DNA of 64,000 nucleotides from assembly GCF_003171515.1 (NCBI RefSeq), contig NC_089390.1, positions 6,324,001-6,388,000 on the forward strand, written 5' to 3'. This stretch comes from Pyrenophora tritici-repentis (Eukaryota; Ascomycota; Dothideomycetes; Pleosporales; Pleosporaceae). The notes beneath the pieces are model-generated. The model made no database searches and was not told the origin of the DNA. It worked only from the letters and a program-made list of their open reading frames with translations. The position numbers and the translations under genes are program-made. The stretch's first letter is position 1. Every line of letters begins with the position of its first letter. Below, in pieces: positions 39,837-44,556 of this stretch.

Positions 39837-40901
39837 ATGGGATGTGGAAGATGGACACTGTTATTTATAAGGGGTTTCGCCCTTCTTGTGGCTTTGGCAA
39901 CTGTTGGGCTGGGCGCATGGTGTAAGTACTCCGAATGTTTGACCTTTGAGACCGAAGTTACTGACAACGTGATATAGCAATTGTCATTACTCGTGACATT
40001 AGGGCTCGCAGTACCGCAGTCATTGAGACGGTTCATCCGGAATCAGAGAGGATGGGGCGCATGTGGGAAAAGTTCTTCGTTCTATCAGTAAAGGGCATCA
40101 TAAGGTTATGGATATCGATTGCAACGGTATGTTTTTGAGTTATCTGTCCAGCTTATAGCGCTAACAGTACAGGCTGCCTTTGCTTCGCTGGGAGGTATCA
40201 TCATTGTCTTGGCAACCATGTCCAATCGCCAGCGCATACCCTCGGCCGTGCTCATCCCCCTCGAGTTCCTGTGTATGTGTGCTATGGGTGCTGCGCTCGG
40301 AGTTTCCCTGAGCTTTACCATGGACCTTGACGCTTTCACCAAGACGCGTCTTGAGGCAGGAGGCCAGCCCGACCTGTTGAGGTGGGCAGTGCTTGTGGAT
40401 CTCAGCCGTGGTCACGCTATTGGAGCCGGAGCCGGATGGTTTCTGCTCCTAGTGACATCCATCACGGCAGTGATTGCCGCATGCTGCCGTCTCCAAGAAA
40501 GGGAGAGCTGCTCTTTTGAACCAACGGCATCAGCACTTGGTATGGGCTACGGGTACGCGGCCGTGCTACCACCTCAGTCGCGCAGTCGCGTACCAACCAT
40601 GTACGTACCAAATGATCTGACAGAGAAAACCGAGAAAATGCCAAAGAGGCAGCAAAGGCGAGACTCGGTGGGTAGGAACCTGGAGATGGCACAGTTGTCA
40701 ACAAGCAAGTCAAGTCTCAATCAAGTCTCTATCGATAAGGGATCAGACCATCCTATGGGACGTGTCCTCGTGCACGGTTATCCCTATGGTCTGTTTGCCA
40801 CTATCGATAACAATCAAGTCGGCTTGACTTGCTTGTTGACAACTGTGGGAGATGGGACGCTCGGACACAGTCGTCAGTCAGGAAGGCAGAATTTCCTTTG
40901 A
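39837..40901 (+). CDS. Four-TM membrane protein, C-terminal tail disrupted by a MITE
   Basis: Three exons (39837-39921, 39978-40126, 40173-40901) give 320 residues as the DNA now stands. Introns are 56 and 46 bp. Four hydrophobic segments are visible: near residues 7-27, around the exon 2/3 junction (LWISIATAAFASLGGIIIVLATM), VLIPLEFLCMCAMGAALGVSL and AGWFLLLVTSITAVIAACC. This is a MARVEL-like topology, common among small fungal membrane proteins of unknown function. From 40690 the frame runs into the 158-bp foldback element, and the encoded tail becomes element sequence until a stop at 40901. Beyond the element a frame at 40852-41040 continues the natural tail (MGRSDTVVSQEGRISFEDD...). The inserted length (158 plus an 8-bp duplication) is 166 bp, so the frame shifts. 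Either the tail is lost, or the element is spliced: a GTGGGT donor at 40668 and an AG at 40851 would reconnect the frame. Confidence 0.65.
40690..40847 (+). mobile_element. 158-bp hAT-like foldback MITE, copy 1
   Basis: Begins CACAGTTGTCAACAAGCAAG and ends with its near-perfect inverse. It is flanked by a perfect 8-bp duplication, GGAGATGG, at 40682-40689 and 40848-40855. An 8-bp target duplication with CA(C/G)AG ends is the hAT-superfamily signature. The inner parts of the two arms have mismatches, so this copy looks older than copy 2. It has no coding capacity. Confidence 0.88.
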
Positions 40902-43009: not shown

Positions 43010-44556
43010 TCAGTATACGCATGAGCTCGAGAAATGAAATGGATCATTGTCGCAGGCTCGTCTTTCATCCGCGTTGTATTCATCGGTGCTCGATTTGAAC
43101 GGCGACATACCAACCGTGATGAGCGAGTTGCCATGGTCGTCCATGAGATCGACAGAAACATAGTTGCCGGAAAGAAGCTCGTTGGGGTCGATAAGACAAG
43201 TGAAGTCGTCATAAAAGAAGTCGTACAAGTATGCGCCCGACTTCTGAATATCCGACCATTGTTTGTTGGATCCTGTCCTTTGGCATGCCTGAATATCGAG
43301 CCCGCCGTCGACTACAACACCTTCGTAGCCGGGCTCGCGCTTGACGATTTTGGCGTCTGATGCGAAAGAAAGTGTGTGCCTAACCTCGCCGTTGTCGTCG
43401 CCATGGATGGTGTAAATGAAGTCATTGCCGTCAGGACCGGTGAATTGGTAAGCCGGCATCTCCGTGTGAGCGTTCTCGCCACGCTTATGAAGCCCAACAT
43501 GTTTGCCTGTAACCCCATAACTATGTAAAACAGACTCCATATACTCCTCATGCGAGAGCAATATTGTCTTGTCTCCTCCATCCAGACCTCGCGCCACCCC
43601 TGGGCGCATACCCAATTCAACCTGTCTTCCACGGAATGTGGCCATGCGGTGTCTGTAGCCCTGGTAGATGCTGAACGTGGATGCAATAAAGGACATCGCA
43701 GTGACGGTTATGGATGCTGCGCAGGTGGCCTGGCTCCAAGGACCAGCTCCTCCTACACCTTGACCAGAGATGTCAACAAGCAAGTCAAGCTGGCTTGATT
43801 CTTATCGATTGCAGATCACAGACAATATAGAGGCTCGTGCACAGTGGCACGTCCCAGAGAATGGTCTGTGATCTGCAATCGATAAGAATCAAGCCAGCTT
43901 GACTTGCTTGTTGACATCTCTGACCTTGACACCCCTTTACGAGGGAAAAATAGGATAGACCATGGGTGACTGTCCAATAACTAGCGGCAATGTAGGGGTG
44001 GTTGTAGGGGATAGCGGCTATCTGAACATCCGAGGTATTGGCCAACGAGATGTCGTACTTTTTAGGAGGTCCCAAGTACTCGTCGTCGGCTCTTGCCTCG
44101 AGGCTGACTTCCGATCCCATCATCTCATCAATCTCTCGTTGAATTTGCTGGGGGCTGCGTTTGGCGGCTACGACTCCGCGGAAGGTGACCCGATAACTGT
44201 TGAAATTGTTGTCGTCGTTTGCAATGCAGGTGAGCTGACTTTGCAGTTCGTACAGCTCGGTACAAGCATTGTCCTTGTAGAGTTCGACCTGCAAAATGTC
44301 GTCTTCGGGATTGTTGAATGCCGTCGTCACGGACCGGGCCATGTCTCGAGTATAGTCGAGCGTCATACACTCTGTAGCCGAATAGTGTCTTTCAGTCGTA
44401 AGACGTTCTCCGTGGCAACCATTGCTTATGTACCTAACACCGGTGTGAAGTCAGTCTGTGTTTCATAGGCAATTTGGGGTTAAACATTACTGACCATGAT
44501 AATTTGACTGCCTGGGCTGTGTTGGCAGCTAACAGAAAGGGTAGAAAGAGTTGCAT
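43010..44556 (-). CDS. Secreted or membrane protein of unknown function interrupted by a MITE/intron
   Basis: Reconstructed from exon 1 (44556-44495), exon 2 (44433-43925) and exon 3 (43758-43010): 439 residues. Exon 1 encodes a signal peptide (MQLFLPFLLAANTAQA). The 61-bp first intron has a GTCAGT donor and GTTAG acceptor. The second interruption is the 158-bp element plus one 8-bp duplication. If exons 2 and 3 are joined at the GT and AG supplied by the duplicated target sequence, the frame is restored exactly (KGCQG/VGGAGPWSQ). Read without splicing, the frame stops inside the element at 43785. Exon 3 starts with a hydrophobic segment (ATCAASITVTAMSFIASTF), so the mature protein may be membrane-anchored, then continues with a hydrophilic region (TGPDGNDFIYTIHGDDNGEV, DFFYDDFTCLIDPNELL, VDLMDDHGNSL) and paired cysteines. 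I recognise no family. Confidence 0.65.
43765..43922 (-). mobile_element. 158-bp hAT-like foldback MITE, copy 2
   Basis: Begins CAGAGATGTCAACAAGCAAG on both strands. The two terminal inverted repeats (43765-43823 and 43864-43922) are identical over 59 bp, with a 40-bp centre. It is flanked by a perfect 8-bp duplication, ACCTTGAC, at 43757-43764 and 43923-43930. It is the same length as copy 1 and has a similar centre (GGGACGTG...GTGCACG), with the same orientation relative to its host gene. Because the arms are identical, this copy looks younger. Confidence 0.93.

What the first reader, a model, noticed from the sequence alone, without database searches (positions are those of the whole stretch)
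43757..43930. MITE insertion that carries its own perfect splice sites: a candidate introner-like element
On the minus strand the duplicated target is GTCAAGGT. Its last two bases (GT) start an interval running through the element to the AG in the second copy of the duplication: donor CAAG|GTCAGA, acceptor GTCAAG|GTG. Removing it deletes exactly 166 bp (element plus one duplication), restores the frame, and leaves the original target sequence. Unspliced, the host gene ends inside the element. In Dothideomycetes, introner-like elements that create introns are known; insertion with a short target duplication that provides splice sites is the proposed mechanism. A hAT-type foldback of this kind would be a new example.
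Basis: partly seen in the sequence, partly recalled or inferred. Interest (0 to 1): 0.82.

Follow-up and report, generated by a model that had tools for sequence, protein, structure and literature searches.

The report
Mobile DNA inserted at intron-compatible site
A young, very common little mobile DNA element landed in a fungal gene at a spot where the copied target bases could let the cell splice it out like an intron; the sequence fits, but this looks like a chance hit by an ordinary element, and whether splicing happens is untested.

Summary
Observation confirmed. A 158-bp foldback element (59-bp perfect inverted repeats, 8-bp target duplication) interrupts a secreted-looking protein gene of Pyrenophora tritici-repentis. 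A 166-nt GT-AG interval (43924-43759, minus strand) would restore the frame exactly. A public 388-aa protein (P0001) equals the predicted product.

Interpretation partly supported. The element does not carry its own splice sites: GT comes from one target copy, AG from the other. It is not an introner family. Of 103 exact-end copies, 100 were read (89 distinct flanks): 85 of 89 elements are identical, 80 of 89 have perfect duplications, and only 2 of 80 targets contain AGGT, about chance. The other AGGT case lies in a repeated, transposase-like ORF.

Splicing is undecided. For: usable donor, branch-like and acceptor motifs; P0001. Against: a public 185-aa protein (P0007) reads unspliced into the element; other public proteins contain the element as exon; a 59-bp stem would bury donor and branch motifs; 11 GT-AG pairs here, not one, keep the frame.

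A highly conserved MITE family, very probably this one, was already reported; hAT insertions spliced as introns are long known in maize. New member of a known kind, moderate interest; existing M4 RNA-seq could settle it.

The parts
43757..43764 (-). target duplication copy 2 on the sense (minus) strand, GTCAAGGT; supplies the candidate acceptor AG (43760-43759)
43765..43922 (.). 158-bp foldback MITE, 59-bp perfect terminal inverted repeats, 40-bp centre
   Evidence: 85 of 89 distinct-flank copies identical over 158 bp
43923..43930 (-). target duplication copy 1, GTCAAGGT; supplies the candidate donor GT (43924-43923)
43759..43924 (-). candidate 166-nt intron (hypothetical; no transcript seen); TTGAC branch-like motifs with A 26 and 14 nt before the 3' end
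   Evidence: predicted product equals public protein P0001
43785..43787 (-). stop codon met inside the element if unspliced (185-aa product, identical to public protein P0007)
43925..44433 (-). host-gene exon upstream of the element (after a 61-nt intron 44494-44434 with donor GTCAGT, inferred by eye against P0004)
44495..44556 (-). inferred first exon with signal-peptide-like start MQLFLPFLLAANTAQA
   Evidence: read by eye against P0004
43010..43758 (-). host-gene exon downstream of the element, to the stop codon
40690..40847 (.). second 158-bp MITE of a related, rarer family, duplication GGAGATGG; not part of the candidate intron

Best explanation
An ordinary, very recently active hAT-type foldback MITE inserted in a coding exon and duplicated 8 bp. 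The target happened to contain AG|GT on the sense strand, so the duplication provides a donor (GT of copy 1, completed by the element's first bases CAGA) and an acceptor (AG of copy 2). The element's inverted repeat adds two TTGAC branch-like motifs near the 3' end. Most likely the spliceosome removes exactly 166 nt from part of the transcripts, while the element's long RNA hairpin competes and leaves the rest truncated at the stop inside the element. Shown: the insertion, duplication, near-identical copies, frames, no family-wide AGGT targeting, and both predicted products among public proteins. Inferred: that splicing happens, and that it is partial.
For: Anatomy and copies. The 100 copies read of 103 give 89 distinct flanks; 85 of 89 identical, 80 of 89 with perfect 8-bp duplication; AGGT in 2 of 80. 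Signals: donor AAG|GTCAGA (7 of 9 matches to the recalled consensus), TTGAC motifs with A 14 and 26 nt before the end, AAG acceptor with no other AG after the first of these TTGAC. The gene's inferred intron 1 also has a GTCAG donor (against P0004, by eye). P0001 (388 aa; its cluster has 8 member sequences on 7 contigs) equals the predicted product. This genome's own contig (9,912,450 bases) cannot be among the contigs of the cluster of P0007 (longest 9,664,470), so its own gene model, if it is in the database and the contig counts are complete, is not the truncated one.
Against: No transcript was examined. P0001 may come from isolates with an empty site. The M4 paper's pipeline also aligned reference proteins to the genome, which could place this intron without RNA support. 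P0007 is unspliced. RNA folding gives -133.8 kcal/mol against a shuffled mean of -60.9, with donor and branch motifs in the stem. Seven further public proteins contain element-encoded residues, i.e. read the element as exon in other places.
Confidence: 0.45

Rival explanations
1. Plain disruption: the element is never spliced; the gene makes a truncated product ending in the element or its mRNA decays. The intact downstream frame only reflects how recent the insertion is.
For: Near-identical copies point to a recent insertion, so an intact downstream frame is no evidence of use. Public protein P0007 equals the unspliced ORF. The stem would bury donor and branch motifs.
Confidence: 0.3
2. An efficiently spliced, newly born intron: nearly all transcripts lose exactly 166 nt and the insertion is close to neutral.
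For: Exact match of P0001 to the predicted product. P0001 is the only full-length cluster named from this species in three searches.
Against: Perfect 59-bp stem over the splice signals; an unspliced predicted protein exists on another contig. Searches list 90%-identity clusters, so variants may hide behind P0001.
Confidence: 0.2
3. The element is partly exonised: a 49-nt interval inside the element (element positions 81-129 on the sense strand) or another in-frame GT-AG pair is spliced, inserting extra residues in the protein.
For: 11 of 17 in-frame GT-AG pairs leave the frame open. P0013 and P0014, public proteins from other insertions, carry residues that by eye fit the same 49-nt internal interval.
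Against: No cluster representative of this gene shows such an insert, though members within a 90% cluster could. The donor GTGCAC is weak by recalled consensus. The models may be ab initio artefacts.
Confidence: 0.04
4. A true introner family: the element is specialised to create introns genome-wide.
For: Two AGGT targets among 27 copies in long open frames, both on the sense strand; for the earlier set of 25, 0.43 were expected and P was about 0.07.
Against: 2 of 80 perfect duplications have AGGT, about chance; 25 of 27 in-frame copies lack it. Eight of 20 in-frame hosts scanned (of 27) match mobile-element domains, one of them below cut-off. The second AGGT host is itself a repeated ORF.
Confidence: 0.01

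Closest known systems
P. tritici-repentis MITE family of Manning et al. 2013 (PMC3538342; passages and section 20 part 1 of 2 read)
   Same: One highly conserved MITE family with more than 200 members well distributed across the genome is reported there; very probably this family.
   Different: No sequence was compared here, so identity is inferred. The MITE passages seen do not mention splicing.
Maize Ds (hAT) insertions spliced as introns (Dennis 1988, Giroux 1994, Wessler 1991; seen only as titles in the reference list of PMC3260210, details recalled)
   Same: hAT-type element with 8-bp duplication sitting in an exon and removed as an intron.
   Different: Ds splicing was shown with RNA (recalled); here it is not. 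As recalled, Ds supplies donor sites itself, whereas here both sites are in the duplication.
Introners with both splice sites co-opted from the insertion site (Florenciella sp., Gozashti et al. 2022, PMC9860276; abstract and passages read)
   Same: Neither splice site in the element; both taken from target sequence.
   Different: Introner families have many intronic copies; here one host-gene candidate plus one in a repeated ORF, out of 80 distinct sites.
Fungal introner-like elements (Collemare et al. 2015, PMC4457414; abstract, introduction and passages read)
   Same: Near-identical copies in a Dothideomycete; an intron-sized insert in a gene.
   Different: ILEs are spliceosomal introns in hundreds of copies in unrelated genes, and fungal introners are described as lacking TSDs and TIRs (PMC9860276). 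This element has both, and most of its copies read here cannot restore an exon by AGGT.

Membership tests
MITE | short, no long coding frame, terminal inverted repeats, high copy number | tested here: met
   158 bp, 59-bp repeats; all three sense frames have a stop; 116 forward and 117 reverse ends with up to 3 mismatches, 103 exact-end pairs (paired by hand)
hAT superfamily | 8-bp target duplication | tested here: met
   80 of 89 distinct-flank copies have a perfect 8-bp duplication
hAT superfamily | CAGNG-type ends (motif recalled) | tested here: met
   CAGAG...CTCTG
hAT superfamily | autonomous partner with a hAT transposase and the same ends | tested here: inconclusive
   hAT dimerisation domains are plentiful (150 of 565 candidates scored), but all 206 exact 16-bp ends pair at about 158 bp, no CAGAGATGTCAAC is followed by a base other than A, and five 12-bp variants were not examined; partner not found
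Introner / introner-like element | many near-identical copies acting as introns in unrelated genes | tested here: not met
   judged by sequence only: AGGT on the sense strand in 2 of 27 in-frame copies, one in a repeated ORF
Introner / introner-like element | systematic supply or targeting of splice sites | tested here: not met
   the GT and AG used lie outside the element; AGGT in 2 of 80 duplications against 2.3-2.55 expected for 75
Introner / introner-like element | RNA-supported precise excision | not testable with these tools
   no transcript data on hand
Ds-type insertion intron | hAT insertion in an exon shown by RNA to be spliced out | not testable with these tools
   only public proteins, which conflict (P0001, P0007)

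The most novel reading that the evidence does not exclude
A DNA transposon with inverted repeats and a target duplication has just created a working spliceosomal intron (removed from half or more of transcripts) in an ascomycete, taking both splice sites from its duplicated target. Because the repeat is palindromic it carries branch-like motifs in either orientation, so any sense-strand AGGT target could become an intron. Alleles with and without it may still coexist in the species, so intron birth could be measured directly.
Probability: 0.3. Interest if true: 0.6.

Novelty: new member of a known kind. Interest (0 to 1): 0.35.

Why it matters
If spliced, it would be a natural, very young example of a cut-and-paste transposon making an intron in a fungus. 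PMC9860276 describes fungal introners as lacking TSDs and TIRs, so the mechanism would be unusual there even if known in algae and maize. It also gives a clean null model: with about 1.6-1.8% AGGT per strand in this window's 8-mers, ordinary MITE bursts should yield occasional spliceable insertions with no specialisation.

Tried and rejected
Introner-family reading: rejected on duplication statistics. Intact downstream frame as evidence of splicing: rejected because the copies are near-identical and so the insertion is probably recent. P0001 as proof of splicing: not accepted, since it may come from empty sites or protein-guided annotation. L060 as a second host-gene intron: not accepted; its ORF is repeated (the same protein sequence is also interrupted in L066, whose flanks occur in 6 copies) and looks like a hAT transposase by eye, though Pfam gave no match for the pieces of L060 and L066 scanned. 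L062, a rearranged relative of L060 with AGGT on one side, was dropped from the AGGT count because its two flanking 8-mers differ. Autonomous partner: not found. The unpaired end at C2:705199 proved to be a copy of the second family with a damaged right end (by eye), and end searches gave nothing useful. Literature: the listings of searches (no paper), 52, 56 and 57 and the passages read showed no report of splicing of this MITE; the library lacks most subscription papers. Host-gene family: Pfam gave nothing above cut-off for either piece.

Full report
What is there. The window lies in contig C1 of a 40.9-Mb, 41-contig genome. It is Pyrenophora tritici-repentis: a database protein of that species equals the host gene's coding pieces, and a protein named PtrM4 sits on a contig of 3,057,012 bases, the exact length of contig C6 here, so the assembly is very probably isolate M4. 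On the minus strand the host gene, inferred by eye against P0004, has a 62-nt first coding exon (44556-44495), a 61-nt intron (44494-44434, donor GTCAGT) and coding sequence from 44433, interrupted at 43924 by the element and continuing to the stop at 43010. Its product is a secreted-looking protein of unknown family; Pfam gave nothing above cut-off. The other five proteins found are 42-58% identical; those with names are from Decorospora, Alternaria and Phaeosphaeria.

The element. It is 158 bp with 59-bp perfect terminal inverted repeats around a 40-bp centre, flanked by an exact 8-bp duplication. The genome holds 116 forward and 117 reverse ends at up to 3 mismatches. With exact 16-bp ends there are 206 ends, which I paired by hand into 103 copies. 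I read 100 of these with flanks (101 reads, one copy read twice; C12, C13 and C27 not fetched). Merging identical 25-bp flanks leaves 89; 85 of 89 elements are identical to the window copy, two differ by one base and two are 157 bp; 80 of 89 have perfect duplications. The family therefore looks very young; note that copies were found by exact ends, which favours young ones (27 more ends are counted at up to 3 mismatches). The duplication preference in an earlier count of 75 is a weak palindrome, C-T-N-R-Y-N-A-G. Manning et al. 2013 already reported one highly conserved MITE family of more than 200 members in this species (PMC3538342); identity with this one is inferred.

Does the family make introns? 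Both AGGT-containing duplications among 80 (the window and L060) lie on the sense strand of long open frames. By chance 2.3 to 2.55 of 75 would contain AGGT on either strand, so there is no sign of targeting. Twenty-seven of 80 copies lie in frames open for at least 190 of about 200 codons; 25 of these lack a sense AGGT (boundary codon not checked). In the earlier set, with boundary codons checked, the share was 25 of 75 against 25% of 3000 random window positions. Two sense AGGT among 25 in-frame copies has a chance probability of about 0.07, suggestive at most. L060 lies in a repeated ORF present with the same insertion at L061 and rearranged at L062, and the same protein is interrupted elsewhere by another copy (L066). 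Of the 27 in-frame hosts I scanned 20 in Pfam, one flanking piece each: eight match transposon or retroelement domains (L116 below cut-off, L096, L045, L064, L070, L108, L054, L042), four match other domains (L041 TPR, L118 below cut-off, L107 helicase, L057 ankyrin), one a zinc knuckle below cut-off (L039) and seven nothing. The window gene was scanned; L006, L007, L080, L091, L100 and L109 were not scanned. This fits an ordinary MITE burst, not an introner family.

Could this copy be spliced? The exact interval is 166 nt, with donor AAG|GTCAGA, TTGAC motifs with A 26 and 14 nt before the end, and acceptor AAG. The public protein P0001 begins with the 139 residues upstream, ends with the 248 residues downstream and has the split-codon glycine between. 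P0007, 185 aa, equals the unspliced ORF; its cluster stands for 3 sequences on two contigs, the longest 9,664,470 bases, with its source hidden because the window encodes it. The present contig is 9,912,450 bases, so apparently another assembly carries this insertion with an unspliced predicted protein, and the present genome's own model, if any, is not in that cluster. P0001's longest contig is 10,080,560 bases, so it may or may not include this genome. The M4 paper's pipeline combined RNA-seq-assisted prediction with alignment of reference proteins (PMC5913888), so a spliced model would not by itself be transcript evidence. The predicted RNA folds at -133.8 kcal/mol against a shuffled mean of -60.9, z -16, with donor and branch motifs inside the stem; I expect this to lower splicing efficiency (inference).

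Other outcomes. Within duplication-element-duplication, 17 GT-AG pairs of at least 45 nt join the upstream to the downstream frame and 11 leave it open. The other seven hits are public proteins with element-encoded residues: P0008 and P0009 end at its stop; P0010, P0011 and P0012 leave it in the centre, at or near its GTCTGT; P0013 and P0014 continue through it in a way that by eye fits a 49-nt internal interval. None of these is transcript evidence.

Comparison with the known. Introners that take both splice sites from the insertion site are described for Florenciella, and ascomycete introners are called an outlier, fungal ones lacking TSDs and TIRs (PMC9860276). Stwintrons in Xylariales have inverted repeats but no TSD (PMC12403724). 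Ds elements of maize, also hAT, are cited as spliced from message and as making an intron de novo (titles in the reference list of PMC3260210). If spliced, the present case is a fungal counterpart of those: new member of a known kind.

Verdict. Geometry confirmed; family claim not supported; splicing of this copy open, with partial splicing my best guess (0.45).

Noticed in passing
window 40690-40847: Second 158-bp foldback element of a related family (ends CACAGTTGTCAACAAG, duplication GGAGATGG), with 11 end matches genome-wide at up to 1 mismatch.
   Followed up: partly
L053 (C1:5444282-5444455 and C1:5445769-5445942): Two MITE copies whose duplications have exchanged partners in inverted fashion, as expected if the roughly 1.3 kb between them was inverted by recombination between the copies.
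   Followed up: partly
L062 (C10:2150149-2150921): A copy flanked on both sides by the same transposase-like arm in inverted orientation (299 and 300 of 300 identical to the L060 arm), a palindromic rearrangement centred on the MITE.
   Followed up: partly
P0013, P0014 (P0014 corresponds to L096): Public proteins that read the MITE as coding sequence and fit the same 49-nt internal interval; probably a gene-prediction artefact, but cheap to check in RNA-seq.
   Followed up: partly
genome G000: Very many hAT transposase domains, often in near-identical long open frames (150 of 565 candidates scored), yet none was linked to this MITE's ends: the mobilising partner is unknown.
   Followed up: partly
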